Assembly (NCBI GenBank): GCA_017473115.1
Contig: JAFUNC010000012.1
Coordinates: 124,001-188,000 of the forward strand
Direction of reading: 5' to 3'
From: Lachnospiraceae bacterium
GTDB lineage: Bacteria > Bacillota > Clostridia > Lachnospirales > Lachnospiraceae
DNA: 64,000 nucleotides
A program made the position numbers and the translations under genes. How positions within the stretch are numbered: position 1 is the stretch's first letter; every line of letters begins with the position of its first letter. A model generated the notes under the pieces. The model saw nothing but the letters and a program-made list of their open reading frames with translations, ran no database searches and was not told where the DNA came from. Positions 10,501-29,539 of this stretch are shown piece after piece.

Positions 10501-10537
10501 AAAAAGAACAAACCACCAAATGATTTGTTCTTTTCTT
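10501..10537 (-). terminator. Terminator after dnaB
   Basis: Minus strand: AAAAGAACAAA and TTTGTTCTTTT form the stem, followed by further T. It closes the gdpP-rplI-dnaB unit. Confidence 0.8.
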
Positions 10538-10553
10538 TCGTACATTCATGCGC

Positions 10554-11885: not shown

Positions 11886-11897
11886 TGTAGTTCCCCT

Positions 11898-12347: not shown

Positions 12348-12439
12348 CTTTCTTCTCTCCGTTCCTGCTTAAGACATTTTCCTAAGCAGTTCTATTGTAA
12401 ACTTTTTCTTTTATAAAATATATAGAGTTCTGGTTAAAA

Positions 12440-14485: not shown

Positions 14486-14693
14486 AGCAACCCTCTTATT
14501 ATCTTTCGTCCTGCTATTAATACCTTCATCGTATGAACGAATCCATACGCTATGATTATACCATTTTCCCGTGAGAACTTCCATAACATTATTTTGATTG
14601 TCTTCGTATTTTTTCACTATATTTAGCGTCAATCTGACAAAGTTCGATAATTCACCCGGTAATGTACTTAATTTCTCCATTAAACAATATCTT

Positions 14694-14736
14694 TATAAAA
14701 ATAACCCTCCTTACCGGAATGTCCGGTAAAGAGGGT
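14694..14736 (-). terminator. Terminator of the SGNH hydrolase gene
   Basis: On the minus strand ACCCTCTTTACCGG-ACATT-CCGGTAAGGAGGGT followed by TATTTTTAT. It separates this gene from gdpP. Confidence 0.8.
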
Positions 14737-14775
14737 ACATATCAAAAAACGACAGCCTTTATTTTTCATCAATTT

Positions 14776-16152: not shown

Positions 16153-16187
16153 ATAGCCTTACCTATCATTTGCATTTTATATATTGT

Positions 16188-16216
16188 ATTATATCTTATC
16201 GTAATATTGGGGTCAA
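16188..16216 (-). promoter_or_regulatory. Promoter of the SGNH hydrolase gene
   Basis: Minus strand TTGACC, 17 bases, TATAAT, about 35 bases before the start at 16152. Confidence 0.75.
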
Positions 16217-16245
16217 TAAAAGCAATGATTCCTTTTTACTTAAAT

Positions 16246-16279
16246 AAAAAACCGATTGCTATTTCAACAATCGGTTTTA
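16246..16279 (-). terminator. Terminator of the rpsF-ssb-rpsR operon
   Basis: Minus strand AAACCGATTG-TTGAAATAG-CAATCGGTTT followed by TTTATTT, eight bases past the rpsR stop. Confidence 0.8.
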
Positions 16280-16286
16280 AATCATA

Positions 16287-16550
16287 TTAATCTACTGAAT
16301 AAGGCATAAGTGCAACGTGACGTGCTCTCTTGATAGCAACTGTCAATGCTCTCTGATGCTTTGCACAGTTTCCGGTGATTCTTCTGGGAAGAATCTTACC
16401 TCTTTCGGATACGTATCTCTTTAACTTAGCAGTATCCTTGTAACTAATAACATTATCCTTGCCACAGAAAACGCAAACTTTCTTTCTTCTGCGCATTCCG
16501 CCTTTTCTCTTCATGGGAGAATCGGATTTATCTGCTTTAACGAATGCCAT
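16287..16550 (-). CDS. rpsR: 30S ribosomal protein S18
   Basis: 87 residues. The core is typical: [17 protein letters not shown], then [20 protein letters not shown] and the [12 protein letters not shown] tail. It keeps C-x2-C and a later Cys, as in the zinc-type S18 of many Clostridia. It binds with S6 to the central domain of 16S rRNA. It is the last gene of the rpsF-ssb-rpsR operon. Confidence 0.97.
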
Positions 16551-16582
16551 AATATTGCCTCCTATCTGAAATCCATAAACAC

Positions 16583-17023
16583 TTAACTAAAAGGTAATTC
16601 CTCAACGATTCCTTCCGGAATGCTCATAAAATCGCCATCTGCTGCTGCAGGTGCGCTATTTCTGCTGTAATTACCTGAACCCCCGTCGCTTGAAGAAGCA
16701 TTCTTGCTCTCAGCGAACTCCTGTTCTTCCGCTACAACATCTGTTGTATAAACCTTCTGACCATCTTTGTTGACATAGCTACCGGTCTGAATACGTCCGG
16801 TTACTAAAACCTTCGTTCCCTTGTGTAAGTATTTCTCAGCAAATTCACCGGCCTTACCGAATGCAACAATATTGATAAAATCAGTATTGTTATCGTCGTT
16901 TCCGCGGTTAAATCTTCTATCAACTGCAAGTGAGTATCTGGCAATTGCCATTGAATTCTCACCCTGTGAATATCTTACATCGGGATCTCTGGTCAAACGA
17001 CCCATAAGAATAACTTTATTCAT
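16583..17023 (-). CDS. ssb: Single-stranded DNA-binding protein
   Basis: 146 residues. The OB fold occupies about 1-105 ([20 protein letters not shown], later [20 protein letters not shown]). A short Ser/Gly/Ala-rich linker follows, then the tail [13 protein letters not shown]. The usual SSB tip ends in a terminal Phe after acidic residues (DDDIPF); here a Ser follows the Phe and the acidic run is only Glu-Glu. The stop codon TAA directly follows AGT, so this is not a misread end. It lies between rpsF and rpsR as in most Firmicutes. Confidence 0.95.
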
Positions 17024-17038
17024 TTATTAACCTTCTTT

Positions 17039-17329
17039 CTATGCTTCGTCCTGTCTAACGCACAAATATCTGATTACATTGTCCATGATACGAACACGGT
17101 TTTCGATTTCGATGGGCGCAGTAGATTCAGCTTCGAAAGCGATGAAATAGTAGTATCCTTCACGCATCTTCTGGATTTCGTAAGCTAATAACTTCTTACC
17201 CCAGTCGTCTACGTTAGTAATGGTACCACCGAATCTTTCGATGAGAGCCTTGCACTTGTCTACAACAGCTACTCTTTCATCTTCTTCGATTTTAGCATTG
17301 ACAACAACAGCTAATTCATACTTGTTCAT
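17039..17329 (-). CDS. rpsF: 30S ribosomal protein S6
   Basis: 96 residues, full length. It begins MNKYELAVVVNAKIEEDERV and shows the family's WGKKLLAYEIQKMREGYYYF segment and the RVIRYL-like end (NVIRYLCVRQDEA). It pairs with S18 on 16S rRNA. It is first in the rpsF-ssb-rpsR operon, behind a strong promoter and a leader hairpin that may bind the S6-S18 complex. Confidence 0.97.
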   Translation of the reverse strand: MNKYELAVVVNAKIEEDERVAVVDKCKALIERFGGTITNVDDWGKKLLAYEIQKMREGYYYFIAFEAESTAPIEIENRVRIMDNVIRYLCVRQDEA

Positions 17330-17357
17330 GCTTGTTACCTCCTTTTGGTCTCTGGCC

Positions 17358-17383
17358 CCTTGCTTTTTATGCAGGGAGCAAGG
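17358..17383 (-). promoter_or_regulatory. Leader hairpin of rpsF operon, putative S6:S18 autoregulatory RNA
   Basis: In the minus-strand leader CCTTGC and GCAAGG pair around a 14-base loop, followed by GGCCAGAGACC and then the AGGAGG ribosome site. rpsF leaders in many bacteria carry an RNA bound by the S6-S18 dimer. The location fits that element, but I could not match its conserved core with certainty. Confidence 0.4.
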
Positions 17384-17407
17384 AATTTTATTACATCACG
17401 GAAAATC

Positions 17408-17436
17408 ATAATAGCACACTTTTCAAGGGTTTTCAA
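17408..17436 (-). promoter_or_regulatory. Promoter of the rpsF operon
   Basis: Minus strand TTGAAA, 17 bases, TATTAT, placed about 80 bases before the rpsF start. Confidence 0.75.
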
Positions 17437-17515
17437 GCACTTTTTAACTTTTATGCCATAATTTTCCGCAGGTTTCCGTATTTTAATTCAATCATTCATC
17501 CGACCTCCGGACTTT

Positions 17516-17689
17516 TTATCGGACTTCTTTTATGCTCTTCTCAAGAACACGTCTCGCCATCATCACCTGATGTCCGCAACCCTCACACTGCAATCGGAAG
17601 TCTGCGCCTTCCCGCAATACCTTCCATTCATAACTTCCGCAGGGATGCTGTTTTTTTAATTTTACGATATTGTCTACATGGATTTCCAT
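17516..17689 (-). CDS. DUF951 domain protein
   Basis: 57 residues from the ATG at 17689, chosen because GGGAG lies eight bases ahead; the frame is open five codons further. The sequence MEIHVDNIVKLKKQHPCGSY, then WKVLREGADFRLQCEGCGHQ and the VMMARRVLEKSIK end is a complete DUF951 domain. It is a small basic protein with three Cys in HPCG and CEGCG, which could bind a metal. Function is unknown. The gene is commonly found near rpsF in Firmicutes, as here. Confidence 0.88.
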   Translation of the reverse strand: MEIHVDNIVKLKKQHPCGSYEWKVLREGADFRLQCEGCGHQVMMARRVLEKSIKEVR

Positions 17690-17768
17690 TCTGCTTTCTC
17701 CCATTCACCGGACATTGTAAACTGCGCGGTCACACGAATCATGCCCGTATTTTGCCTTGTGGCATAAA

Positions 17769-18488
17769 TTACAGTCGGCTCATCACTTCGCCGATTTTAC
17801 CTTCAATCACAAGGTTTGCGCGGGTCTCACGCTGCGTTTGCGACTTATTAATCAAGACAAGTTTATCTCCCCTATAATAGTCAATCAAACCTGCTGCCGG
17901 CCACACTGCCAAGGAAGTTCCGCCAATGATTAAAATATCCGCGTTTGCAATATACTGAATGGATTTGGAAATGGTTGTATCATCCAGACCCTCTTCATAC
18001 AGAACCACATCCGGCTTAATCACACCGCCGCAAGCCGGGCACCTGGGCACGCCCTCGCAACCGGTAATGGCATCAATGCCATAAAACGCATGACACTTGT
18101 CGCAATAATTACGGTGCACGCTTCCGTGCAGTTCCATCACCTCTTTACTGCCGGCCAGTTGATGCAATCCGTCAATATTCTGGGTAATCACCGCTTTTAA
18201 CTTGCCCTGTTCTTCCCATTCGGCCAGTTTCAAATGAGCCGCGTTGGGTTTTACATTGTCGATAATCATTTTATCACGATAAAAGCGATAAAACTCCTCG
18301 GTTTTGCGCCAGAAAAAAGTATGACTCAGAATCGTCTCCGGCGGATAATCATACTTCTGATTGTACAATCCGTCAACGCTGCGGAAATCAGGAATACCGC
18401 TTTCCGTAGATACTCCGGCACCGCCAAAAAATACGATGTTGTTGCTGTTTTCAATCCACTCTTTTAATATGGTAATTTTCTCTTCCAT
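17769..18488 (-). CDS. NAD-dependent protein deacylase (sirtuin)
   Basis: 239 residues, typical for bacterial Sir2/CobB proteins. The NAD-binding motif FFGGAGVSTESGIPDFRS, the TQNIDGLHQLAG segment, the catalytic His in ELHGSV, and four zinc Cys (CDKC and CPAC) are all present. It removes acyl groups from lysines using NAD, producing nicotinamide and O-acyl-ADP-ribose. Members of this type often help control acetyl-CoA synthetase and other metabolic enzymes. It stands alone upstream of the DUF951 gene. Confidence 0.94.
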   Translation of the reverse strand: MEEKITILKEWIENSNNIVFFGGAGVSTESGIPDFRSVDGLYNQKYDYPPETILSHTFFWRKTEEFYRFYRDKMIIDNVKPNAAHLKLAEWEEQGKLKAVITQNIDGLHQLAGSKEVMELHGSVHRNYCDKCHAFYGIDAITGCEGVPRCPACGGVIKPDVVLYEEGLDDTTISKSIQYIANADILIIGGTSLAVWPAAGLIDYYRGDKLVLINKSQTQRETRANLVIEGKIGEVMSRL

Positions 18489-18601
18489 GGGTACTCCTTT
18501 CTTCTTGTACTATTACAACATTTTGAATCATTTCATGTAATACTATTGAACTTTAATCACGTCAGATTTCACTTCTGATGTCCGTCTTATACATTGCATA
18601 A

Positions 18602-18778
18602 CTACATCTGCTTACGCACAACCCTGTACTCGTCACCATTCTGATAAAAAGGACAGGTGCTGCGGGGATTATTCATCAAACGGGCGTAATCGTCCTCATC
18701 CATATCTGCCGCGCACAAATACTCTTCATAATCCTCATCATAGTAAAGATGTGCACATTCATCACAATTTGCCTGCAT
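18602..18778 (-). CDS. Small Cys-containing protein (DUF6472-like)
   Basis: 58 residues from the ATG at 18778, which has GGAGTAGAT ahead; the longer open frame lacks such a site. It begins MQANCDECAHLYYDEDYEEY and ends with YRVVRKQM. Cys residues in CDECAHLYYD, LCAADMDEDD and TCPFYQ suggest a small zinc-binding fold. I recall very similar short proteins in Lachnospiraceae annotated as DUF6472. No function is known. It lies 77 bases downstream of the isochorismatase-type gene and may be cotranscribed with it. Confidence 0.65.
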   Translation of the reverse strand: MQANCDECAHLYYDEDYEEYLCAADMDEDDYARLMNNPRSTCPFYQNGDEYRVVRKQM

Positions 18779-18855
18779 ATCTACTCCGTTCCAACGGTTA
18801 AAACCGTCTGTTTTTGTTATTCTGTTCGCCTTTTTTTCACCCGGCAATCCCTATA

Positions 18856-19386
18856 TTATAAAACCTGAATCTGACACATTTTCATAGTGGTCAGAGCCGC
18901 TTCGTTGCTCTCCGGTGTCACAGCCGCAACGCAGGAAGCATCCAACGCAATGGGCATCTCCGGATAATTTGCTTTCAAAAGAAGGGCATTGGATACCACA
19001 CAAATATCGGTGCAAAGTCCTACCAGTTCCACGCTGCACTCTTCCTTTGCAAGATCTTCTCCTACAAGTTCTGCCAAGCGCACGGAACCGAAGGTAGGTT
19101 TCTCTACTTTTACCACAGGACAGTCAACTGCCTGCAAAGCCGCTTCCACCTCAGAATTTAATTCCCAGCCCTTGCTGCCTTTGATACAATGGGGCACGGG
19201 AAGATTCTTACCTTCGGAAGTTTCCATATAATTCTCACCGTGGGTATCGTAGGTAACATAGATTTTATCCCAGAAATTGTCCGTAATCTTTTTTACCACG
19301 TTCGGTACGATAGCAATGGCTTCCTTGGTTCCCAATGCCATATCAATAAAATCATTCTGCATATCTACAACTACTAATATTTTCAT
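18856..19386 (-). CDS. Isochorismatase-family cysteine hydrolase (nicotinamidase-like)
   Basis: 176 residues from the ATG at 19386 behind AGGGGGATGCGAA. The family fold is evident: VVDMQNDFIDMALGT with the catalytic Asp, the Lys in VKVEKPTFGS, and the nucleophile in ELVGLCTDICVVSNA. The Asp-Lys-Cys triad matches nicotinamidases and related amidases. A nicotinamidase would return nicotinamide from the neighbouring sirtuin to NAD salvage, which is attractive but not proven; no metal-binding D-x-H-x3-H trio is clear. Upstream it follows a zinc-ribbon gene after 11 bases. Confidence 0.8.
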   Translation of the reverse strand: MKILVVVDMQNDFIDMALGTKEAIAIVPNVVKKITDNFWDKIYVTYDTHGENYMETSEGKNLPVPHCIKGSKGWELNSEVEAALQAVDCPVVKVEKPTFGSVRLAELVGEDLAKEECSVELVGLCTDICVVSNALLLKANYPEMPIALDASCVAAVTPESNEAALTTMKMCQIQVL

Positions 19387-19397
19387 TTCGCATCCCC

Positions 19398-19727
19398 CTA
19401 TAACTTTTCTTTTATGATTGTAACCCAGACAGCCACGCAAAAGACCATCATCGCGCCAAAAAATACCATCATCAGTGTATACCGGTCAAAAACAGTTTTG
19501 GCAACTACCGCCAGAACGGCACATACCACAGCCAGTATAATAAAAAGCATTTTCCAAAACCTCTTATCTTTCAAACCGGCACCTTTCGCATGCTTCTTTT
19601 CATATTCTTCCATTTCTTTGTTTTGACGAAGTTCTTTCATTTCATCCGGCGTAAAATAATGTCCGCAAAAAGGACAGTTTTTTACATTATCGCCAACCAT
19701 TTCATTACAGTTCATACATTGAAACAT
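19398..19727 (-). CDS. Zinc-ribbon membrane protein
   Basis: 109 residues from the ATG at 19727 (AAGGAGAAGAGTAAG ahead). The N-terminus is a zinc ribbon, CMNCNEMVGDNVKNCPFCGH, followed by a charged helix and two membrane helices (about 55-76 and 82-103). The ribbon faces the cytoplasm in the likely topology. Such small ribbon-plus-membrane proteins are common in Clostridia and have no known role. Its start is two bases after the stop of the 48-residue gene (TAAGATG), so translation is coupled. Confidence 0.7.
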   Translation of the reverse strand: MFQCMNCNEMVGDNVKNCPFCGHYFTPDEMKELRQNKEMEEYEKKHAKGAGLKDKRFWKMLFIILAVVCAVLAVVAKTVFDRYTLMMVFFGAMMVFCVAVWVTIIKEKL

Positions 19728-19728
19728 C

Positions 19729-19875
19729 TTACTCTTCTCCTTCTGACATACTCTCTTCCATCGTACTTTCGGCGTCCGAATCACGGTCTTCTCCCTTTGC
19801 AAGACGGTTGAGCGTTTCTTTATAGCGTTCGCTGGTTTCTTCAATTATTTGCATTAATTTCTGGTCGGTATCCAT
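19729..19875 (-). CDS. Small acidic protein, 48 residues, unknown
   Basis: Begins MDTDQKLMQIIEETSERYKE and ends MEESMSEGEE. A near-perfect ribosome site (AAAAGGAGATCTCTTAA) precedes the ATG, and a promoter (TTGAAA, 18 bases, TATACT) is just upstream. The stop overlaps the region of the next gene's start. It is hydrophilic, helical and rich in Glu, with no Cys and no membrane segment. I do not recognise it. It heads the unit of zinc-ribbon protein, isochorismatase-type hydrolase and small Cys protein. Confidence 0.65.
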   Translation of the reverse strand: MDTDQKLMQIIEETSERYKETLNRLAKGEDRDSDAESTMEESMSEGEE

Positions 19876-19928
19876 TTAAGAGATCTCCTTTTCCGTATTA
19901 AAACCGGAGAGTATTTATGTACTGTTAT

Positions 19929-19958
19929 AGTATAGCACATCAAAATCCCCGGTTTCAA
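19929..19958 (-). promoter_or_regulatory. Promoter of the unit starting at 19875
   Basis: Minus strand TTGAAA, 18 bases, TATACT, followed about 50 bases later by the ATG at 19875. Confidence 0.6.
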
Positions 19959-20025
19959 TTTATAATGTCATTTTATCCAGCCATTTATCTAATTTATTTT
20001 TGTCAGCCTACCGTCTGTTGCCTTT

Positions 20026-20130
20026 CTACACACGAAAAACGTTCTCTCTCCGCACAAGTTCTATCGCTTTGGTCTCTCCAATCCCCAGATAGTTGCACAA
20101 CTCTTTCAGCGTCAGCAACTTTCTCTCCAT
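20026..20130 (-). pseudogene. Truncated excisionase-like HTH protein
   Basis: 34 codons: MERKLLTLKELCNYLGIGET, then KAIELVRRENVFRV and stop. The ribosome site AGGAGGGAAAAG is excellent. The sequence matches the first helix-turn-helix of Tn916-type excisionases and similar 'helix-turn-helix domain' proteins, which normally run on with a 'VGRRVLI..KLL..WI' wing. Here the frame stops just before the wing. It is probably a remnant of an integrated element and marks the left edge of the accessory island. A functional mini-protein cannot be ruled out because the ribosome site is intact. Confidence 0.5.
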
Positions 20131-20224
20131 CTTTTCCCTCCTCTCTTCTAAAATACTTGTTAAGTATATTGGGAGGAATATAAGGCGGCATTTGAACTTC
20201 GTAAAGTGGCGGGTACAAAAGAAA

Positions 20225-20247
20225 AACCCGTCAAAAATTGACGGGTT
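20225..20247 (-). terminator. Terminator after the gene at 20296
   Basis: Minus strand AACCCGTCAA-TTT-TTGACGGGTT followed by TTTCTTTT. Confidence 0.8.
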
Positions 20248-20295
20248 GGGGTGGGATACAATATATAAAACCAATTTTTATAATCATAGTAATCT

Positions 20296-21087
20296 TTATA
20301 TATTATTTATTTTTTCAAACTCATAATATTTAATTTCCGCCGAAAAACGAACCGGCAATTTAAGTTCTTCATCAAACTCTAAATCAGATAACTCTACCAA
20401 TATGTGTCTACCATATTTCAAGGGTATTAGCGTAAAAAGTAATGACTGGTCATTTTCCATCTGTAATTCAATATTTTTTGGCCCATCAGGACAAATCACC
20501 GCAAATCTCACTTCATTCTGAATTTCGTACCCTTCCTTAACTTTGTGAAATATCGATTCAAAACTATCCTTCATTGCCAAATCACAATATTCTATATCTG
20601 ACAACTTATCATTTAAATCATAGTGAATCTTTCCGTAAGCATACGAAAGTTCTGCTTCCACGGCTGCTTTCTGAAATTTATCAATAAAAACTCTTGTATT
20701 CTTTATAGCCATTAATTCTGTATCATCGCCTTGCCATAAAGGTTCTATATATTCCCAAGGTATAACATAGTAGTACTTATTATTATCTGCGTCATAATAC
20801 TTTTCATCATACTTCAAACCATACATACAATAAATATATGCATCATTGTTTTTACGCATATATGAAGTATTACCTAATAAATGCCAAGTTTTCTTATTAT
20901 CTGCAGAATAAAATATTTGAGATGGTATATTAGTTATTACACCTTCATATTTATCATATTGTCCTTCTGTAAGTCCGGCCTTTTTGAATGCCATCTGCGA
21001 ATTCATAAACAACTTGTATTCATCATATAAAGTTTTATTGTATTCAGGTTTGGATATCCTTATTAGCAACAACAATTGCTCTCTCAT
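20296..21087 (-). CDS. Unknown protein, partner of the HEPN-like gene
   Basis: 263 residues, starting at an ATG behind GAGGTGACCAT. It is soluble and has many aromatic residues: a run of Tyr near residues 85-112 and YYYVIPWEYIEPLWQGDD. A later segment, GYEIQNEVRFAVICPDGP, resembles the 'E-E.EyR' motif of DUF2971-like proteins found in defence loci, but the match is weak. No catalytic motif is certain. It lies 79 bases after the HEPN-like gene at 21167 in the same direction, with one terminator after it, so the two are probably one operon. Base composition is AT-rich like the rest of the island. Confidence 0.6.
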   Translation of the reverse strand: MREQLLLLIRISKPEYNKTLYDEYKLFMNSQMAFKKAGLTEGQYDKYEGVITNIPSQIFYSADNKKTWHLLGNTSYMRKNNDAYIYCMYGLKYDEKYYDADNNKYYYVIPWEYIEPLWQGDDTELMAIKNTRVFIDKFQKAAVEAELSYAYGKIHYDLNDKLSDIEYCDLAMKDSFESIFHKVKEGYEIQNEVRFAVICPDGPKNIELQMENDQSLLFTLIPLKYGRHILVELSDLEFDEELKLPVRFSAEIKYYEFEKINNI

Positions 21088-21166
21088 ATGGTCACCTCAT
21101 AACATATAACAATAATTATTTTCATCAATCAGTACATTTTAAAATTTCATTTATTCTCCATTTTAA

Positions 21167-22186
21167 TTACATCTCTGCTTTCTCTAATGGTTTTAATCCT
21201 AGCAGAAAATCTGTAAACAAAATAGCATTTAAAGCCATCTTTCTATTTGGATATGTATTGTACCAACAGTGAGCAATACCATGCCTACCCGGAACATCTG
21301 GCATAAAATCCTCCGGATTGGTACAATTGTAAAATATAAACTCCTCGCAAAAAGATGCGAATATTTTATCAAACTCGTTTGCGTTTATTAACTGCGTTAG
21401 ATTTTTACAAGTCTTACCACTAGTACGAAAACTATAGTCATGCACCTTTTCTTGTATAATGCCCTCCCACAAAGTCGACAGCGCACTTACAGTTAGCGCA
21501 TATTCTCTACGATGATATGCTTGAATTGACTGAACCAATATCCTTGTCATGTAAGACGGAAGATTCATTTGCCTCCATCCGCGCTTTAAATTATTTATTT
21601 CTTCTTTGGTATAATAAGAAAAAATCAACCTATCGATTCTTTTAATACGATTTTTACTAACCTTGCTCGTATCAAGAATTTCGAACATTGCATCAGCAAT
21701 TCTAAAATCAGCGATCCACCCAGCATAAGGAAACCATCTGGCATCAAACATAGCCTTTAAAAATATCTCATTAACTTCCTTATAATCGCAAGCAAAACCA
21801 CTATCACAAATGTTTTCTAAAATACTTGTTAACGGTGAAAAATCAATCGTTTGTAACCACTCGCCAAGAGTAGAAGCAATAGTATGAAGCCCTTGCATCA
21901 TTGGATTTGTAACTAGTGCCATTAGTCCTGTAGCTACATTTTCCACTACACTGTTACTCCATTCATCAAATGCTCTAAGTGCCGGACTTTCAAATTGGTA
22001 ATTTGGAATTGCGGACTTCATTGCAATTTCTCCCAGCGCACAAACCATACTACTGTTTTCAGCAAGAGTATTTATCATAGTTTCATTTGCCAATAAATCA
22101 TTCATGGCACGATTGTGAAGTTTTTCGCCATTATCTATATCCTTAGAAATAGATTCTGAAATTTGTAATTCTTTATGCTCATCCAT
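21167..22186 (-). CDS. HEPN-like protein with C-terminal Rx4H motif
   Basis: 339 residues. The first 130 residues are helical and Met/Leu-rich without clear membrane segments. The C-terminal third is all-helical and contains REYALTVSALSTLWEGIIQE and then GRHGIAHCWYNTYPNRKMAL. R301 and H306 form the Rx4H motif of HEPN RNases, set in a helix after a conserved 'tlwEGii' helix, as in HEPN toxins and Abi proteins. I infer an RNA-cleaving or related abortive role. The start ATG has only a weak, distant ribosome site; a stronger AGGAGG lies about 50 bases upstream without a start codon. It has its own promoter. Confidence 0.65.
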   Translation of the reverse strand: MDEHKELQISESISKDIDNGEKLHNRAMNDLLANETMINTLAENSSMVCALGEIAMKSAIPNYQFESPALRAFDEWSNSVVENVATGLMALVTNPMMQGLHTIASTLGEWLQTIDFSPLTSILENICDSGFACDYKEVNEIFLKAMFDARWFPYAGWIADFRIADAMFEILDTSKVSKNRIKRIDRLIFSYYTKEEINNLKRGWRQMNLPSYMTRILVQSIQAYHRREYALTVSALSTLWEGIIQEKVHDYSFRTSGKTCKNLTQLINANEFDKIFASFCEEFIFYNCTNPEDFMPDVPGRHGIAHCWYNTYPNRKMALNAILFTDFLLGLKPLEKAEM

Positions 22187-22244
22187 TCTGTCTTATATAC
22201 CTTCTCTGCCCTAAATACTTTTCGATATGTTGCTCCTCCTATTA

Positions 22245-22273
22245 ATTATACTGTTAGTTTTTTATTTGTTCAA
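22245..22273 (-). promoter_or_regulatory. Promoter of the HEPN-like gene pair
   Basis: Minus strand TTGAAC, 17 bases, TATAAT. AGGAGG follows soon after, but the first in-frame ATG is about 50 bases further on. Confidence 0.7.
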
Positions 22274-22640
22274 TTGCCTCTTAGTAGACTCGAAAAACAT
22301 CTCCTAATTAAACACAGTGATAAAATGCAAAACTCATTTTTGATTTTCGATAGGATTATTTCAGAAATATACACCATTATCTAGCCTGCCATGCGTCGCT
22401 ATCGCGACAAGGGTTTGACAATGATGTATATTCCTGAATGGGTGTTATATAAGCCAATCAAGCACGCGTGTGTTACACTCAATTCACACACTTCCTAACG
22501 CGTAGAATATCATTTACAAGATACACATTTGTGTACATAAACGCATTTTGTTAAGAGACATCCCCAAAACCTCTCTATAAAATAGTGATGGTGCCACCAT
22601 CTCTTCACTCTTTTGTCTGATCGCACCACCTAGACAGAAA
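22274..22640. other. Gene-free stretch inside the island
   Basis: About 370 bases between the two operons. It contains a short palindrome (GTCGC-TATC-GCGAC near 22394-22407) and a 35-codon plus-strand frame from 22391 with no ribosome site. No gene, terminal repeat or attachment site was recognised. Composition is mixed, with GC-rich patches in AT-rich surroundings, which could reflect a junction of two insertions. Confidence 0.4.
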
Positions 22641-22684
22641 AACCACCCTCAAACCCGGTATTTATATGGTTTTGAGGGTGGTGG
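22641..22684 (-). terminator. Terminator after the MmeI-type gene
   Basis: Minus strand ACCACCCTCAAA and TTTGAGGGTGGT enclose a 17-base loop and are followed by TTTTTCTG. It lies 21 bases past the stop codon. Confidence 0.85.
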
Positions 22685-22704
22685 CAATTATATATTTTCT
22701 ATAT

Positions 22705-25527
22705 TTAACTACTAATCAATCTTTGATACCTTTCCATAAGAGCTACAACACAATCCGCTTCAGACATATCTTTTATGTTAAATCCGTATGCTTTCATAAC
22801 CGCAACATTATTTCTATCATGGGCTTTACTTAAATCGCTTGGCATAAGATTAGGATCATATAACACTTCAAAAGGTGTATCTTCATACTTCTTTCTAACA
22901 TTAATAATATCTTGCGCAGTTTGTTCAATCACTACAATTTGCTCTTTCGATGCATCTGGCCATGGAAAGGTATTATATACTAATTCTTTTGAATATCTAT
23001 ATCTCATTTCCAATCGTCCACATACAGTTCTCATCCATGCCATATGTACATTAGATGTCAAAACACCAAAATGAAATAAACTAGCATTAGGAACTATTTG
23101 TACAGCATTTGATGCAATCACATCTGACTGAACAAATCCAATCGGAACATATCTTCTTCGCTCTGATGACACACTTGGGATAATCAAATAACTAACATTT
23201 TCTGGCTGTGTTATCTGCGCAAACATATGCGGCACTTTGGCATATCCCTTAGTCGTTTTCGCCTTTGAATTTAATCTAAATTCTTTTACAGCTTCAACCT
23301 TATGGTATAAAATGTGGCTTTTCGCAATATCATTTGGCCTAGCATTTTTTAACCATAGGCACCATCGTTCTTTTCCTTTAATAAATTCATCTGCACCAAC
23401 ATATTTTCTTATCCATTTTTCTAATTCCGGTTCTTTTTTTAGCAGTTCCTCTCTCTCTTCTTTATTCAATATGAAATGTCCACCATCTCTTGGCTGATTG
23501 CCAAAATTCATCTTAGGTACATCGCATAAGGCATTTTTTTCTGCAGAAACATATCCTGTCCTAATTGGCAATAAATAAGGATTAATGTAATTAACTATCC
23601 TTTCTTCTGCAGTAGAATCAACTTTTCTATATGTAAATAATCTTTTTCGTTCTCTATCACGGATAGAAAAACCAACAATTATAACATATACATGGGCGTT
23701 TGAATTCGCCTCATTACTCCACTCAAAAGTTTGGTGCGCAAAATTGATTTTTACATTATAATCATTCAACATCACATTCCACAAAATAGGTACTTGTGCC
23801 CCTTGACAAATAGAGTTAGTAGAAACGAATCCCACTTCAATAGTTGTTCCTTGAATATACTCAGCTGCTTTTTTATACCAACCAGTTACATAGTCCAAGT
23901 CTTGAACATCTTTTATCTTTCCAAAAAGGGATTCTATTTCATTCTTTTGCGGACTACCCTGTTCCATCATTCTAGCACCTACAAAAGGTGGATTTCCCAT
24001 TACATATTTACAATTTGATTTATGAAGAACTTGGTTCCAATCTGTTGTTAGCGAATTATCTTCTCTTATATTCACATACGATTTAAGCGGCAAAAATCTA
24101 GCATTAATATCTACAAACGATAAAGTTTCCTTCATCATTTGCGCTTCAGCTATCCAAAGAGCTGTTTTTGAAACCGTCACAGCAAAATCATTAATTTCAA
24201 TTCCATAAAACTGTTGAATCGAAACCTTAATATCAAACATATCATCCATATTAATAAATCCAAAGATTAATTGTCCTGACGCCACATCTTGCTTTAACTC
24301 TTTCAAAATCTCATTCTCTAATTTTCGAAGCGATATATATGACTCCGTCAAAAAATTACCGGAACCAGATGCTGGATCTAAAAATGTTAAAGACGCTAAT
24401 TTTTCTTGCAATTTTTGTAACGCTTTTGTTCTCGCTCCACCAACAGTAGTCTTTGCTTTACACTCTCCAAACTCGGTTTTTAAATCATCTAAAAACAACG
24501 GATCTATTACCTTATGTATATTTTCAATAGATGTATAATGCATCCCACCCGTTCGCCTTGTTTCTGGATTCAGCGTACTTTCAAAGATTGCACCAAATAT
24601 TGTAGGGCTTATTTCACTCCAATCAAATCCATCGGATGCTTTTTCCAACAGAATATCTTTTAACTCTTCTGTAAATTGTGGAATCTTAATATTTTCATCA
24701 GAAAAAAGCCCACCATTCACATAAGGGAATTCAAGAAGATCTTCATCCTCATCCTTATCCCTCTCATTTTCAGGGGTATCAAGTATCCTAAACAAATTTT
24801 TGAGTGCTCCTCGCATATGCCTTGGTTCTATATCCTTTAAATAATCATGGAAAATGCTCTTTTTCCCAAATAAACCAGCATCTTCTGCATACATACAAAA
24901 CACTAATCTTACACACAGAACATTAAGACTTTTTAAAACTTCATCACTTCGTTCTGCATAACTGTTATAGAGTTGGTCGTATAAAATCCCAACAATATCA
25001 CCAGCTTGTATAGACAATTCCAATTCTTTAGATGTTTTTACAGTATCTTTTTTTACCAAAAAGTTTAATCTATAGAAGTCTGTTTGCAAATCTTCTATTT
25101 TTATTTTTTCTATCTTTGCTTCTGGGTCTCTTACATTCATATCATATACCCAGATTTCAGCAAAATTCGAAGTGACAATGTATCTAACTTTTTCATCATA
25201 AGGCAAATTATCATTATAGCGTTTTGCTTGCTCATAGGGAGTAAGCTCAATATCCCCAGAATTATGGTATTTCTTGTCTAATGCCTTTCCCAAACTTTTT
25301 TGTTCAATAATGATTTTCGTGTCAGAAATATACGCATCTATACTTTTAGTATTTCCACTAACCAACACCTTTTTCTGAAAATCAATTTTATCGGTAGCTT
25401 CTGACACCCCTAATATTCTCTGAAATATATCTAGCCAAAAAGAACGATCATCTTCATCCTCTTTTCCTTTTCCACTCCACTTTATTATAAATTGCCTAGC
25501 CGCTTCTCTCTGTTCATCAATAGTCAC
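22705..25527 (-). CDS. MmeI-family type IIL/IIG restriction-modification enzyme
   Basis: 940 residues, close to MmeI (919). The N-terminal nuclease part has D64 with E75-Q76-K77 (IDAYISDTKIIIEQKS) and the family phrase LTPYEQAKRYNDNLP. A helical linker follows. The N6-adenine methyltransferase has SAM motif FLDPASGSGNF (about 382-392) and catalytic NPPF (about 512-515). The C-terminal target-recognition region includes the RYVPIGFVQSDVIASNAVQIV and WMRTVCGRLEMRYRYS blocks. One chain both methylates one strand of its site and cuts DNA about 20 bases away in this family. The start is GTG at 25527. Both activities look intact. It follows the HEPN protein gene by 64 bases. Confidence 0.93.
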   Translation of the reverse strand: MTIDEQREAARQFIIKWSGKGKEDEDDRSFWLDIFQRILGVSEATDKIDFQKKVLVSGNTKSIDAYISDTKIIIEQKSLGKALDKKYHNSGDIELTPYEQAKRYNDNLPYDEKVRYIVTSNFAEIWVYDMNVRDPEAKIEKIKIEDLQTDFYRLNFLVKKDTVKTSKELELSIQAGDIVGILYDQLYNSYAERSDEVLKSLNVLCVRLVFCMYAEDAGLFGKKSIFHDYLKDIEPRHMRGALKNLFRILDTPENERDKDEDEDLLEFPYVNGGLFSDENIKIPQFTEELKDILLEKASDGFDWSEISPTIFGAIFESTLNPETRRTGGMHYTSIENIHKVIDPLFLDDLKTEFGECKAKTTVGGARTKALQKLQEKLASLTFLDPASGSGNFLTESYISLRKLENEILKELKQDVASGQLIFGFINMDDMFDIKVSIQQFYGIEINDFAVTVSKTALWIAEAQMMKETLSFVDINARFLPLKSYVNIREDNSLTTDWNQVLHKSNCKYVMGNPPFVGARMMEQGSPQKNEIESLFGKIKDVQDLDYVTGWYKKAAEYIQGTTIEVGFVSTNSICQGAQVPILWNVMLNDYNVKINFAHQTFEWSNEANSNAHVYVIIVGFSIRDRERKRLFTYRKVDSTAEERIVNYINPYLLPIRTGYVSAEKNALCDVPKMNFGNQPRDGGHFILNKEEREELLKKEPELEKWIRKYVGADEFIKGKERWCLWLKNARPNDIAKSHILYHKVEAVKEFRLNSKAKTTKGYAKVPHMFAQITQPENVSYLIIPSVSSERRRYVPIGFVQSDVIASNAVQIVPNASLFHFGVLTSNVHMAWMRTVCGRLEMRYRYSKELVYNTFPWPDASKEQIVVIEQTAQDIINVRKKYEDTPFEVLYDPNLMPSDLSKAHDRNNVAVMKAYGFNIKDMSEADCVVALMERYQRLISS

Positions 25528-25591
25528 TGTAGCACCCCCAAAAAAATTATGTATTACTCGCTATAAACATAATATTGTATACAATTGCTTT

Positions 25592-26731
25592 TTACTCAGC
25601 ATTTTCTTCTTTCAAATTATTGATTTTGCTTGTTAGTCCAATTATGTTCATATTCGGATTAAATTCTTTAAGTGATTCCTGCAATTCAAACACAGCTTCC
25701 GGTAATTTTATTTTGTATTCGTCGGTAGATGAAATTAAGTTTTGAATTTCTTTAATCGCTGGCGGAATATTAAGTTGAATCTTTTCAATATCCCCAATGC
25801 TTTGCAGAATCGAAAACAAATCTAGCAAATTTATATTTTCTTTTACCAACGCCAAATTGTCATCATTAATAACACTGCTCATTTTTCCTAATGTTGAAAA
25901 AAATAAACTCGCTTTTTCTGAAGAAAACAATTTATGCCAACCTTCTAAAATCTCTTGCCAACTTATTGTTTGCGTCGTTTCTTCCATATCTTTCATAGCA
26001 TTTCCCAGTGTCGTATTAAAATCACTTTCACTGCACGTTTCAATATTTTTATCAATAATTTTTTCTATTTCATAATTTAGTTGCTCATTTATCTCTCTAA
26101 TAAGTTTCATTGCAGTCGAATAGGTTGATGAACTTATATTATGTGCATGCATAATATCATTGCGATACACTTTTACTTTTATAAAATTTGATCGTAACAG
26201 CGGTACTGCATTTTCACCTATTAAATTATCCCACAAGGTCTTTTCATTTAACTGTGTTAACGCAGATATAATTTCATCCTTGGTAAATTGCCATGTTTTA
26301 TCATTGACAGTTTTTTTGACATTTTGAACATAATTTGAATCAGTAAATAACAGCGTAAAAATTTCACCAAAATCTTTGCTTTCTAAATCTTTAATTAACT
26401 CTGCGTCTTTTTTATTTTCACATAATGCACTCTTCAAATAAAGCAATTTTCTTAAATTCCGTTCAAATGTATTATAATGCGGAAATAACGATTTATTATA
26501 ATATGCCGAACAACCATTACTCAATATAGTTGGATTATAGTTTCTTATAACATAATCATTTGCTTTTGATAATGTATGAGCAGTTTTCTCATTTTCTCCG
26601 TCTAAAGAAAATACAGCAATCCAACAACTCGAATTCTCAATATCAAATATTTTAATCTTGACATTTTCTGGAATATTTTCCTTTATTTTTGTTTTATAAT
26701 CCTTCTCAATAAAAAGATATTCTTGAACCAT
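25592..26731 (-). CDS. HEPN-domain protein, candidate RNase toxin
   Basis: 379 residues, AT-rich gene. An N-terminal region of about 85 residues is followed by an all-helical part with FPHYNTFERNLRKLLYLKSA and then VKVYRNDIMHAHNISSSTYS. R190 and H195 give Rx4H with the preferred Asn after Arg, the active-site motif of HEPN RNases such as those in Abi and toxin-antitoxin systems. The last third is helical without a known domain. It sits between the AAA ATPase and the restriction enzyme in one operon (55 and 64 bases apart). I infer a backup that cleaves RNA when restriction fails. No nucleotidyltransferase antitoxin partner is present. Confidence 0.68.
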   Translation of the reverse strand: MVQEYLFIEKDYKTKIKENIPENVKIKIFDIENSSCWIAVFSLDGENEKTAHTLSKANDYVIRNYNPTILSNGCSAYYNKSLFPHYNTFERNLRKLLYLKSALCENKKDAELIKDLESKDFGEIFTLLFTDSNYVQNVKKTVNDKTWQFTKDEIISALTQLNEKTLWDNLIGENAVPLLRSNFIKVKVYRNDIMHAHNISSSTYSTAMKLIREINEQLNYEIEKIIDKNIETCSESDFNTTLGNAMKDMEETTQTISWQEILEGWHKLFSSEKASLFFSTLGKMSSVINDDNLALVKENINLLDLFSILQSIGDIEKIQLNIPPAIKEIQNLISSTDEYKIKLPEAVFELQESLKEFNPNMNIIGLTSKINNLKEENAE

Positions 26732-26786
26732 AATATTCTAATTACTCCCACTTAGTATTTTTATTAAATTTATCATATCTTTCTCT

Positions 26787-28184
26787 CTACTTCATCGCTC
26801 CCAGAATATCCGCATAACTAACCAATGTTACATTACCCATATTCTCAGCCTTTTCCACACAACCTTTTGTAAAACCGGTTTTAGAAAACAAGTAATAATG
26901 CACTTTTGTATAGCGGAATAATTCACTGCGACCAATTAAAGTTTCAAGAATGTCTAAATCTACTTTTTCATTTCTCCACTTACATTCCGCGAACAATGCT
27001 GATTCACTATCCTGTTCACCCATAATATCTATTTCCGCTTGGCATTTCTGTATCGGATCATTTCCCCACCAGCGGCCAAGTGCTCTAAATTCAATCGGCG
27101 TATTTCCTTCAAGAAGTTGTTTCCACAGATACTGAATACAAATCTCTTCAAACACACTTCCCATATAGTCTGATAATTGAGGCTCAATACGCTTGTACAC
27201 TATGTCAGCAGCACCTCGGGCAATCACAGAACTGTTATCCAACACAAAGCGATACCAAAAATAAAACATATTATCTTCAATAGAATAAATAGACTTTCTG
27301 GATTCTTTTTCTCCGTACGGTATCTCTTTTTTTACAATGCCAAGATTTATCAAATTCTTAATATAATTAGCACATACATTGGTATCCTCACCCACCTTGG
27401 AAGAGATCTCAGACATGCGCGTATGCCCGGTTGCAATTGCGGTAATAATAGCATTATAAATTCCCGGTTCACGAACCTCTTGCTTCAAAAGATTAACAGG
27501 CTCCTCATAAAGAAACGACATAGGATTCAAGTATGTGTTTTTAATATTTTCTTCCACACTCAACCAGTCACTCATTTGCAAAAGATATTGCGGAGTACCG
27601 CCTACAATACCATATATCAATGCTTTATCTTCATCCGGCAGGTTATTAAAATAGCGACAACTCTCCTCGAAATCAAACGGTAAAATCTTCATTTGTGCCG
27701 TTCTTCTTCCGTAAAGAGGAGATTTATACGCAAGTACATGATCCTCCATGTAGGACATGGAAGAGCCACATAATATAAGCATCAATTTGGATGTATCTTT
27801 ATATTTATCAATCAGCAACTGCAATGTAGACGCCAGACTTTTCGATGAACGCGCCACATAGGGATACTCATCAATGGTAAGAATGATCCGCTCCTTTTCC
27901 GCCAACCGAAATACATATTCCAAAGCAGCCTGAAAAGATACAAAAGATGTTTCATTTTGAATACCACTACTAAATTCGATAATACTTTTACTAAGATTTT
28001 CCAGATTCTGCTTCTCGTTACTCTCAACGCCCATAAAGTAAATAGACTTCTTATCATCAATAAAATGATTAATAAGCGCAGTCTTTCCCACACGACGGCG
28101 TCCGTATATTACTACAAACTCGAACTTATCTGATTTATATAGTTTATCTAATGTGTTTAACTCTTTGTCTCTGCCTATAAACAT
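26787..28184 (-). CDS. AAA ATPase with DUF234-type nuclease-like C-terminus
   Basis: 465 residues. Walker A is GRRRVGKT (residues 28-35, in VVIYGRRRVGKTALINHF). The Walker B region is IILTIDEYPYVA, followed by an arginine-rich sensor area (SPLYGRRTAQMKILPF). A winged-helix part comes next (about 240-300), then a C-terminal domain with AEIDIMGEQDSESALFAECK, the D...E-x-K core of PD-(D/E)XK nucleases. This layout matches the 'archaeal ATPase plus DUF234' family, widespread in gut Clostridia and often near mobile or defence genes. The start at 28184 has GGAGGTGTTTCG ahead. It is first in the operon and could be its sensor, but that is inference. Confidence 0.88.
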   Translation of the reverse strand: MFIGRDKELNTLDKLYKSDKFEFVVIYGRRRVGKTALINHFIDDKKSIYFMGVESNEKQNLENLSKSIIEFSSGIQNETSFVSFQAALEYVFRLAEKERIILTIDEYPYVARSSKSLASTLQLLIDKYKDTSKLMLILCGSSMSYMEDHVLAYKSPLYGRRTAQMKILPFDFEESCRYFNNLPDEDKALIYGIVGGTPQYLLQMSDWLSVEENIKNTYLNPMSFLYEEPVNLLKQEVREPGIYNAIITAIATGHTRMSEISSKVGEDTNVCANYIKNLINLGIVKKEIPYGEKESRKSIYSIEDNMFYFWYRFVLDNSSVIARGAADIVYKRIEPQLSDYMGSVFEEICIQYLWKQLLEGNTPIEFRALGRWWGNDPIQKCQAEIDIMGEQDSESALFAECKWRNEKVDLDILETLIGRSELFRYTKVHYYLFSKTGFTKGCVEKAENMGNVTLVSYADILGAMK

Positions 28185-28209
28185 CGAAACACCTCCATTT
28201 GATATCTAT

Positions 28210-28238
28210 ATCATATTACTCATTTGCAGTTTAGTCAA
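28210..28238 (-). promoter_or_regulatory. Promoter of the AAA-HEPN-MmeI operon
   Basis: Minus strand TTGACT (28233-28238), 17 bases, TATGAT (28210-28215), about 26 bases before the start codon. Its -35 box forms part of an inverted repeat. Confidence 0.75.
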
Positions 28239-28267
28239 GTATGATTGAGTAAATTATGATTGACTAA
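28231..28267. promoter_or_regulatory. Inverted and direct repeats over the operon promoter, likely operator
   Basis: TTAGTCAA (28231-28238) and TTGACTAA (28260-28267) are perfect inverted copies. Inside them ATGATTGA occurs twice as a direct repeat 15 bases apart (28241-28248 and 28256-28263). The left arm is the -35 box. A protein bound here would block transcription, as expected for a tightly controlled toxic operon. No dedicated regulator gene is visible in the island. Confidence 0.55.
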
Positions 28268-28280
28268 TTTAGAATTATAA

Positions 28281-28308
28281 AAAGGACCGCGCCTATGTCG
28301 CAGTCCTT
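28281..28308 (-). terminator. Terminator after the RlmI-type methyltransferase gene
   Basis: Minus strand AAGGACtGCG and CGCgGTCCTT with a loop ACATAGG, followed by TTTAT. Confidence 0.65.
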
Positions 28309-28339
28309 CCGCACATCAAATTTCGGCACTTTTCACACC

Positions 28340-29539
28340 CTAAAACTCCTCACACACCTGAAATACATAAAACTTCAAATAATACGACTCTTCCGCAGCC
28401 CACAGAATCGGATGATCCGGTGACTGGGTCTTAAATTCCACCTGGCGTAAGCGCTTATGCACCATACTGGCCGCCTGATGAATCGTGGCGGTAAACAACT
28501 CGTAGGTCATAAAATGCGAGCAGGAGCATGTTGCCAGGAATCCACCATCCTTAACCAGTTTCATAGCACGCAAATTAATCTCGCGATATCCTTTTATTGC
28601 ATTTTTAACTGATGCTCTCGACTTGGTAAAAGCAGGCGGGTCCAGAATTACCACATCGAACTTCCGTCCTTCCGCCTCCAGTCTGGGAAGCAAGTCAAAT
28701 ACATTATCCACTTCAAAACGAACCACATTCTCAAGACCGTTTAACTTCGCATTCTCCGTCGCCTGTTCCACTGCCAGATCCGACACATCAATGCCCAATA
28801 CTTCTTTGGCACCGCCAAGTCCCGCATTCAATGCAAAGGAGCCGGTATGGGTACAGCAGTCCAGAACGCTCGCGTCCTTACACAACTTCTGAATTGCCAG
28901 ACGATTATACTTCTGGTCCAGGAAGAACCCTGTCTTCTGACCGTCTTTGATATCGACCCAATATTTTACGCCGTTTTCCACAATCTGCACCGTGGTATCG
29001 AATTCTTCCCCGATAAAACCTTTTATCTGAGGAAGTCCTTCTTTCACGCGCTCTCTGGCATCGCTTCGCTCATATACACCGCGGACAACAATACCATCCT
29101 CAGCCAGCGCACGCTTCATTCCCTCCACGATGGCAAGTTTCCAACGGTCGATGCCAAGTGCCAACGACTGCACCACAAGCACATCTTCAAACTTGTCCAT
29201 CACAAAACCGGGCAGAAAATCCGCCTCACCGAAAATCAGTCTGCAACTGGACGTATCCACGGTTTTCTTTCGGTACTCCCAGGCATTTTTAGCCCTTTGA
29301 TAAAAGAACTCCTCATCAATGACAGCCTGCGCATTACGTGTTAACATGCGCACACGAATCTTGGAATTCACATTGATAAAACCGATACCCATAGGATAGC
29401 CGTCGAAATCCTGCACAGACACTAAGTCACCGTTTTCAAACGCACCTTTAACCTCTGCGATTTCATTGTCAAATATCCAAAGGCCACCGGATTTTAGAAG
29501 TCTGCCTTCTCCCTTTTTTAATGTTATGATTGTATTCAT
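28340..29539 (-). CDS. Class I SAM-dependent rRNA methyltransferase (RlmI/RlmK-like)
   Basis: 399 residues, normal length. A PUA domain comes first (about 1-75, MNTIITLKKGEGRLLKSGGL and the MGIGFINVNSKIRVRML strand). A linker follows, then the Rossmann methyltransferase with VLDCCTHTGSFALNAGLGGA, the EVLGIDVSD acidic loop, and VILDPPAFTKSRAS with the Pro-Pro catalytic motif. The family methylates a cytosine of 23S rRNA at C5. Its ATG overlaps the stop of the zinc-ribbon gene by four bases (ATGA), so it is translationally coupled to it. Confidence 0.9.
   Translation of the reverse strand: MNTIITLKKGEGRLLKSGGLWIFDNEIAEVKGAFENGDLVSVQDFDGYPMGIGFINVNSKIRVRMLTRNAQAVIDEEFFYQRAKNAWEYRKKTVDTSSCRLIFGEADFLPGFVMDKFEDVLVVQSLALGIDRWKLAIVEGMKRALAEDGIVVRGVYERSDARERVKEGLPQIKGFIGEEFDTTVQIVENGVKYWVDIKDGQKTGFFLDQKYNRLAIQKLCKDASVLDCCTHTGSFALNAGLGGAKEVLGIDVSDLAVEQATENAKLNGLENVVRFEVDNVFDLLPRLEAEGRKFDVVILDPPAFTKSRASVKNAIKGYREINLRAMKLVKDGGFLATCSCSHFMTYELFTATIHQAASMVHKRLRQVEFKTQSPDHPILWAAEESYYLKFYVFQVCEEF

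What the first reader, a model, noticed from the sequence alone, without database searches (positions are those of the whole stretch)
20026..28267. AT-rich accessory island that looks like a compact defence locus
Five complete genes and one truncated gene are bunched together: MmeI-type restriction, two HEPN-motif proteins, an AAA ATPase with nuclease-like end, an unknown partner and an excisionase remnant. The base composition by eye is much more AT-rich than both flanks. The flanks are ordinary housekeeping genes. The joint occurrence of restriction plus two putative RNA-cleaving proteins suggests layered phage defence. The combination is one I do not recognise as a named system.
Basis: partly seen in the sequence, partly recalled or inferred. 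Interest (0 to 1): 0.75.

Follow-up and report, generated by a model that had tools for sequence, protein, structure and literature searches.

The report
Patchwork defence island with HEPN genes
At a site where close relatives carry other genes or nothing, this bacterium holds a small patchwork of probable anti-virus genes: one complete DNA-restriction enzyme and two different proteins that probably cut RNA, one of them from an unnamed family that often sits beside restriction genes.

Summary
The AT-rich island is real: GC 0.336 against 0.402 and 0.414 in the flanks, and no equal-length stretch outside it falls below 0.391. It is an insertion. In relatives G001 and G030 the rlmI-like and isochorismatase-like genes are 11-12 bp apart; G019 holds about 13 kb of other genes there; G027 holds the ATPase alone.

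Contents: a complete MmeI-type IIL restriction-modification enzyme, an ATPase_2-DUF234 protein, two unrelated RxxxxH proteins ('HEPN1', 379 aa; 'HEPN2', 339 aa), an unknown 263-aa protein and an excisionase remnant.

It is not one system: HEPN1, HEPN2, MmeI and the 263-aa gene were not found together elsewhere.

The transferable finding is HEPN2. It fits no Pfam, PADLOC or NCBIfam family, yet in 10 of 17 distinct loci the next same-strand gene is restriction-modification (types I, III, IV), against 8 of 227 other ORFs there. HEPN1 relatives occur beside type III Mod, PARIS and C5-methylases. Likely role: RNase back-up to restriction, a known hypothesis for other HEPN clades. Fold and activity are untested.

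The parts
28340..29539 (-). RlmI-like 23S rRNA methyltransferase; stable right flank of the hotspot
   Evidence: PUA_3 and Methyltrans_SAM Pfam matches; best NCBIfam matches are rRNA methyltransferases, below their cut-offs; orthologues at 89-95% in G001, G019, G027 and G030
26787..28184 (-). ATPase_2-DUF234 protein, PADLOC candidate PDC-S27, with nuclease-like tail
   Evidence: Pfam ATPase_2 1.1e-29, DUF234 3.1e-27, Mrr_cat 0.01 below cut-off; PDC-S27 3.2e-62; alone at the same site in G027 at 95% protein identity; a second DUF234 gene in the own genome
25592..26731 (-). HEPN1, 379 aa: putative Swt1-like HEPN RNase with RNDIMH; 64 bp upstream of the MmeI gene, same strand
   Evidence: No Pfam family above cut-off. 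R190, N191 and H195 invariant in 5 of 5 aligned members; relatives L095 (HEPN_Swt1 2.6e-8, over cut-off) and L096 (9.4e-5, under cut-off)
22705..25527 (-). Complete MmeI-type IIL restriction-modification enzyme, 940 aa
   Evidence: Five MmeI Pfam domains over cut-off; REase_MTase_IIG 1125.7 bits over its length; full-length match to MmeI 5hr4, E 2.7e-184, with nuclease D..ExK and methylase NPPF aligned
22187..22704 (-). Structured intergenic element: hairpins followed by a sigma-70-like promoter before HEPN2
   Evidence: 22200-22704 folds with z -5.03, 0 of 100 shuffles as good; 73% identical copy in the G019 island at the same hotspot, before a different gene; TTGAAC-17-TATAAT at 22273-22245, unchanged in G019; no Rfam match up to E 1
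21167..22186 (-). HEPN2, 339 aa: putative HEPN RNase of an unnamed, often restriction-linked family, with RHGIAH
   Evidence: 20 loci in genome contigs; R301 and H306 invariant in 17 of 17 rows; next same-strand gene is R-M in 10 of 17 distinct loci; no Pfam, PADLOC or NCBIfam family above cut-off
20296..21087 (-). 263-aa protein of unknown function
   Evidence: No Pfam, PADLOC, NCBIfam or PHROG match at the limits used; 67% identical homologue in G315 among genes that I read by eye as conjugative-element backbone
20026..20274 (-). Excisionase-like remnant, interrupted soon after its HTH
   Evidence: HTH_17 0.0027 and TIGR01764 'excise' 0.021, both below cut-off; 19913-20005 conserved at 95% in G027 next to the ATPase
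19398..19844 (-). Zinc-ribbon protein, also inside the variable segment
   Evidence: No tblastn hit in the loci of G001, G019, G027 and G030; Pfam zinc-ribbon matches below cut-off
18856..19440 (-). Isochorismatase-like gene (name recalled from the sequence, not searched); stable left flank; ORF start extended, conserved part ends near 19386
   Evidence: Orthologues at 81-90% in G001, G019, G027 and G030

Best explanation
The segment 19390-28337 is one filling of a cargo hotspot between the rlmI-like gene and the isochorismatase-like gene, probably left after decay of a mobile element (excisionase remnant, no integrase seen). Its core is a self-contained type IIL restriction-modification enzyme, with two HEPN-motif genes of different families. 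Shown: the insertion and its replacement by other cargo in relatives, the intact MmeI domain set, the invariant RxxxxH residues, and the frequent operon-like position of HEPN2 relatives next to restriction genes of types I, III and IV. Inferred: both HEPN proteins are growth-arresting RNases that act when restriction is overwhelmed or blocked, like PrrC beside its type Ic restriction system but without PrrC's ABC ATPase part. Because HEPN2 partners change type, it more likely senses a general sign of infection or failed restriction than one particular restriction subunit. In this window HEPN1, 64 bp upstream of MmeI, is the candidate partner of the enzyme; HEPN2 has a promoter-like site of its own behind hairpins and is probably a separate unit.
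For: Empty site in G001 and G030, other cargo in G019 and G027. MmeI complete. HEPN2 family: next same-strand gene R-M in 10 of 17 distinct loci, against 6 of 228 other non-R-M ORFs of the same loci with the first reference set and 8 of 227 with three more references; gaps from -50 to 42 bp in 9 of these 10 and 428 bp in L066; partner genes matched in Pfam, except L071, a Mod fragment 92% identical to that of L064. Three further loci have an R-M gene two to four ORFs away (L072, L073, L065). Partner type is not clustered on the tree (type III needs 6 changes; 334 of 500 shuffles as low). RxxxxH invariant in 17 of 17 rows. HEPN1 relatives: overlapping the start of type III Mod in L094, 220 bp downstream of a PARIS AriAB gene in L061, divergent from two C5 DNA methylases in L109. 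General model in print: passages of PMC3710099 and PMC3506569.
Against: No fold could be predicted. HEPN2 matches no HEPN Pfam family above cut-off, and HEPN1 and HEPN2 profiles do not match each other. In the window itself HEPN2 is not followed by R-M; it lies 518 bp downstream of MmeI behind hairpins. Of the 7 of 17 HEPN2 loci without R-M immediately next, L075, L078 and L079 showed none among the ORFs listed (L079 has only one ORF on one side), and L077's only one is a methylase-domain protein among what look like conjugative genes. On either-side counting the contrast is weaker, 10 of 17 against 21 of 243. HEPN1 relatives L095 and L108 show no restriction gene. Eight MmeI relatives on plasmids have no HEPN1 homologue within about 4 kb; one has a weak HEPN2 match (E 0.001, 22% identity) that the HEPN2 profile did not confirm.
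Confidence: 0.6

Rival explanations
1. Unconnected cargo: the genes were collected at a hotspot, each acting alone or not at all, and HEPN next to restriction reflects only defence-island clustering.
For: No co-occurrence of the set elsewhere; ATPase alone at the site in G027 and different cargo in G019; promoter-like site just before HEPN2 in the window; MmeI relatives on 8 plasmids lack a clear HEPN partner.
Against: Clustering alone does not predict the tight, same-strand position directly before Mod, HsdM, HsdR or McrB-like genes (10 of 17 against 8 of 227 in the same loci).
Confidence: 0.3
2. The HEPN-motif proteins are non-catalytic RNA-binding regulators of restriction gene expression rather than toxins.
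For: HEPN domains thought to be non-catalytic exist, such as MtlR (passage in PMC3710099); a position before the methylase gene fits a regulator.
Against: R and H are invariant in 17 of 17 HEPN2 and 5 of 5 HEPN1 rows; the partner restriction genes are of unrelated types.
Confidence: 0.12
3. The HEPN genes are toxins of toxin-antitoxin pairs, with the 263-aa protein, the ATPase or the structured element as antitoxin.
For: HEPN2 and the 263-aa gene are 79 bp apart on one strand; structured element before HEPN2.
Against: The 263-aa homologue lies in G315 without HEPN2; no HEPN2 relative locus has it; the element precedes a different gene in G019; no island protein matched a nucleotidyltransferase antitoxin family in Pfam.
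Confidence: 0.08

Closest known systems
PrrC-PrrI (anticodon nuclease beside a type Ic restriction system; passages of PMC3710099 and PMC3506569)
   Same: HEPN RNase gene next to a restriction system, proposed second line of defence.
   Different: HEPN1 and HEPN2 lack the ABC ATPase half; HEPN2 partners are types I, III and IV by adjacency, with IIL further off in this window; substrate unknown.
R-M-linked HEPN clades of PMC3710099 (12 of 30 passages seen)
   Same: At least 16 HEPN clades are reported there beside R-M systems; HEPN1 may join their Abi2/Swt1 group by way of its relatives.
   Different: HEPN2 has no Pfam model in the copy used; whether it equals one of their unnamed groups could not be checked by sequence.
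MmeI, type IIL restriction-modification (PDB 5hr4; PMC4833311 seen in a search listing only)
   Same: Full length, five domains, catalytic motifs.
   Different: Target sequence not determined; HEPN1 lies 64 bp upstream.
PADLOC candidate PDC-S27 (ATPase_2-DUF234)
   Same: Profile match E 3.2e-62.
   Different: A candidate only; two DUF234 genes in this genome.

Membership tests
MmeI-type IIL restriction-modification enzyme | One chain with N-terminal nuclease, helical spacer, N6-methylase, target recognition domain and C-terminal domain | tested here: met
   Five MmeI Pfam domains over cut-off
MmeI-type IIL restriction-modification enzyme | Nuclease D..ExK and methylase NPPF motifs | tested here: met
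   Aligned with 5hr4; the motif names are recalled
HEPN superfamily (HEPN2, 339 aa) | Rx4-6H motif | tested here: met
   Invariant R301 and H306 in 17 of 17 rows
HEPN superfamily (HEPN2, 339 aa) | Profile match to a HEPN family | tested here: inconclusive
   HEPN_RiboL-PSP in 2 of 17 members, best E 0.017
HEPN superfamily (HEPN2, 339 aa) | HEPN fold | not testable with these tools
   Structure prediction switched off; no credible PDB relative by sequence, best E 0.52 to an unrelated protein
Swt1-like HEPN (HEPN1, 379 aa) | RxxxxH motif | tested here: met
   R190 and H195 invariant in 5 of 5 rows
Swt1-like HEPN (HEPN1, 379 aa) | Match to PF18731 | tested here: inconclusive
   Not in the window protein; 2 of 5 members, over cut-off in L095, under it in L096
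PrrC/RloC anticodon nuclease | ABC-type ATPase fused to the HEPN domain | tested here: not met
   No ATPase domain found in either protein
PrrC/RloC anticodon nuclease | Anticodon cleavage of tRNA | not testable with these tools
   Needs a biochemical assay
A multi-gene defence system made of this gene set | The same genes recurring together in other genomes | tested here: not met
   No two of HEPN1, HEPN2 and the 263-aa gene in any of 397 family genomes besides the own; no two of these and MmeI in 28 loci
Active integrative element | Intact integrase in the segment | tested here: not met
   No integrase seen among the ORFs of 60 aa or more in 19390-28337; only an excisionase-like remnant

The most novel reading that the evidence does not exclude
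HEPN2 defines an unnamed family of restriction guard RNases, mostly in Clostridia and Erysipelotrichia, that is indifferent to restriction type: it is plugged into type I, III, IV and perhaps IIL systems and responds to a signal shared by all of them, such as blocked or bypassed restriction. HEPN1, a Swt1-like protein, takes the same slot before a methylase gene in other loci (type III Mod in L094, MmeI in this window).
Probability: 0.3. Interest if true: 0.68.

Novelty: new member of a known kind. Interest (0 to 1): 0.42.

Why it matters
Restriction-linked HEPN RNases are a proposed second line of phage defence. A family that keeps the same slot beside very different restriction systems would let one ask directly what common signal such guards sense. 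For the island itself the value is modest: it is a clear example of cargo turnover at a chromosomal hotspot, with two close relatives empty and two carrying other contents.

Tried and rejected
One compact system: rejected, because the genes do not recur together. Phage or plasmid source of the HEPN genes: no relatives of HEPN2, HEPN1 or the 263-aa protein in viral contigs or plasmids. HEPN1 and HEPN2 as one family: not supported by profile comparison, probability 0.4%, although the RxxxxH residues fall together. Intergenic element as a known RNA: no Rfam match up to E 1; no match in plasmids or phages; its core not found exactly in viral contigs; in 319 family genomes only three short matches of 26-50 bases besides the own, a sample in which G019, which has the long match, is not among the matches. 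Element as a transfer origin like that of the G315 element: a pattern from it is absent there; not decided either way. The pair count on the hairpin rests on two sequences, so its shuffle control says nothing. MmeI with a HEPN partner as a general rule: not seen beside 8 plasmid MmeI genes picked by me from 30 listed of 262 records. Dropped before the HEPN2 count: L082 (69-base match) and L076 and L081 (near copies of L073), leaving 17 of 20. L063/L066, L069/L070 and L064/L071 are close pairs on the tree, so the binomial tails overstate independence. The restriction reference set (13 proteins, 10 of them checked in Pfam) was taken from the same loci and missed some restriction genes; one search repeats it with three more. 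The ORF lists include spurious ORFs. The tree has 17 rows (16 loci and the window; L078, split in two frames, left out), long branches and open forks, and labels L065 and L077 as without partner, before one search found methylase domains near them.
Full report
WHAT IS THERE. The island 20026-28267 has GC 0.336; the rest of the window has 0.402 (1-19389) and 0.414 (28338-64000), and 393 equal-length windows outside the island never fall below 0.391. By gene: 379-aa gene 0.285, 263-aa gene 0.306, MmeI gene 0.337, 339-aa gene 0.356, ATPase 0.373.

IT IS AN INSERTION AT A HOTSPOT. The window is G000:C11:124001-188000. RlmI orthologues at 89-95% were found in G001, G019, G027 and G030 and neighbouring DNA was fetched. 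In G001 and G030 the rlmI stop is followed after 12 and 11 bp by the start of the isochorismatase-like gene: the site is empty. In G019 the same interval holds about 13 kb of other genes, including a CBASS cyclase (PADLOC E 1.3e-96), a 2TM effector (1.1e-48) and a protein whose kinase part matches PD-T4-6 (9.9e-34). In G027 it holds the ATPase (94% DNA identity) plus the 19913-20005 stretch of the excisionase remnant. So of five genomes with this synteny, counting the own, two are empty and three are filled, each differently. Eight more distant relatives fetched have RlmI at 66-72% identity but no isochorismatase-like hit in the fetched stretch, so they say nothing about this site. The ATPase is separable from the 6.8 kb between 20006 and 26784.

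THE GENES. The MmeI-type protein has five MmeI Pfam domains, fits the PADLOC type IIG profile over its length and aligns end to end with MmeI 5hr4, E 2.7e-184, with nuclease and methylase motifs kept. The ATPase is ATPase_2 plus DUF234 and matches the PADLOC candidate PDC-S27; a second DUF234 gene exists in this genome. The 263-aa protein matches nothing in Pfam, PADLOC, NCBIfam or PHROGs at the limits used; its one strong homologue, 67%, lies in G315 among genes that I read by eye as conjugative-element backbone. The excisionase remnant matches HTH_17 and 'excise' weakly.

HEPN2 (339 aa). In 397 family genomes it was found in 4 besides the own, one a weak 52-residue match. A scan of genome contigs gave 20 loci; by the record titles 19 come from Clostridia- or Erysipelotrichia-type organisms and one from a MAG labelled Bacteroides (L071). 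R301 and H306 of RHGIAH are invariant in 17 of 17 aligned rows. No Pfam family fits above cut-off; the nearest HEPN model, HEPN_RiboL-PSP, is at E 0.017 at best, in 2 of 17 members.

HEPN2 NEIGHBOURS. After removing L082, L076 and L081, 17 loci remain. The next gene on the same strand is a restriction gene in 10 of 17: type III Mod in L064, L067, L068, L069, L070 (split), L071 (a fragment) and L080; HsdM (N-terminal part) in L063; HsdR in L066, where an N6_Mtase-Methylase_S gene also ends 12 bp before; and a McrB-like EVE-AAA protein followed by McrC in L074. L072 has Mod one gene further on; L073 has HsdR, HsdS and HsdM genes three to five ORFs upstream; L065 has an EcoRI_methylase match (over a short part) four ORFs on; L077 has a protein with N6_N4_Mtase three ORFs away on the other strand, among genes that look conjugative; L075 (HipA_C next), L078 (UvrD nearby) and L079 have none among the ORFs listed. 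Other non-restriction ORFs of the same loci have a restriction gene next in 6 of 228, or 8 of 227 with a larger reference set; counting either side, 10 of 17 against 21 of 243. As a background, 20 genomes searched for N6_N4_Mtase gave 64 matches, about three a genome, some of them pieces of one gene. On the tree the partner type is scattered: type III needs 6 changes and 334 of 500 shuffles are as low. This says that the partner type turns over; several forks are weak.

HEPN1 (379 aa). Besides the own genome, 3 of 397 family genomes matched (one strongly) and 9 of 363 order genomes (one strongly); several weak ones match only the C-terminal part. Six relatives were looked at in context: L061, 220 bp after a PARIS AriAB gene; L094, directly before type III Mod, a 167-aa gene and Res; L096, after a DUF234 ATPase (46% identical to the window's) and a TIR/SEFIR gene; L109, divergent from two C5 DNA methylases, with HNH_2 and DUF2971 genes following; L095 and L108, no restriction gene and no defence gene that I recognise by eye. 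R, N and H of RNDIMH are invariant in the five aligned members, window included. The link to Swt1-like HEPN rests on L095 (over cut-off) and L096 (under). HEPN1 and HEPN2 profiles do not match beyond the motif.

THE STRUCTURED GAP. Between MmeI and HEPN2 lie 518 bp that fold far better than shuffles (z -5.03) and hold TTGAAC-17-TATAAT. G019 has a copy at the same hotspot, 73% identical, in front of a different gene that I read as HNH (PADLOC type IV restriction only at 3.1e-5). In the main hairpin all 31 pairs hold in both sequences, and the four substitutions all keep a pair through a G-U step; two sequences cannot prove RNA structure. It may be a leftover of the element that first entered the hotspot, kept while cargo on either side was exchanged (inference).

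MECHANISM. Shown: insertion, intact restriction enzyme by sequence, invariant catalytic-type motifs, frequent restriction neighbourhood of HEPN2. Inferred: RNase activity, growth arrest, trigger by failing restriction. The idea that HEPN toxins back up restriction is in print: passages of PMC3710099 name at least 16 HEPN clades beside R-M systems and propose the PrrC analogy, and a passage of PMC3506569 says that many type I and III systems hold HEPN families. PMC11090510 describes HEPN RNases with McrBC relatives (passages). In the listings I saw no paper that describes the HEPN2 family, but these were word searches and cannot find a family without a name. In the window itself the tight pair is HEPN1-MmeI (64 bp, no terminator-like site found between); HEPN2 is probably a separate unit downstream.

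VERDICT. A real accessory island and a plausible defence island, but an assemblage rather than a system. The transferable finding is the often restriction-linked HEPN2 family.

Noticed in passing
22187-22704 and L032:7962-8523: Structured intergenic element with an identical promoter-like site, shared by two different cargoes at the same hotspot; no Rfam, plasmid or phage match, and its core not found exactly in viral contigs.
   Followed up: partly
L032:3264-16181: The G019 filling of the same hotspot holds a CBASS cyclase and 2TM effector, a PD-T4-6-like kinase part, a gene I read as HNH and a 944-aa protein that looks like a double AAA ATPase.
   Followed up: partly
L034:9844-16845: G030 is empty between the rlmI-like and isochorismatase-like genes but has a 2333-aa protein, repeat-rich by eye, on the other side of the isochorismatase-like gene.
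   Followed up: no
L061:3160-7727: Single-protein PARIS (AriAB) gene followed by a HEPN1 relative and a 411-aa gene without a PADLOC match; an HNH-like ORF by eye lies further on.
   Followed up: partly
L071: Contig of a MAG labelled Bacteroides carries a HEPN2 gene and a Mod fragment 92% identical to a Lachnospiraceae one; possibly mis-binned.
   Followed up: no
L070:10823-12678: The type III Mod gene beside HEPN2 is split into two overlapping frames, so that locus may have lost modification.
   Followed up: no
L101:2293-3813 and L103:7928-9700: Two of eight plasmid MmeI-type genes have a reverse-transcriptase gene within two listed genes.
   Followed up: no
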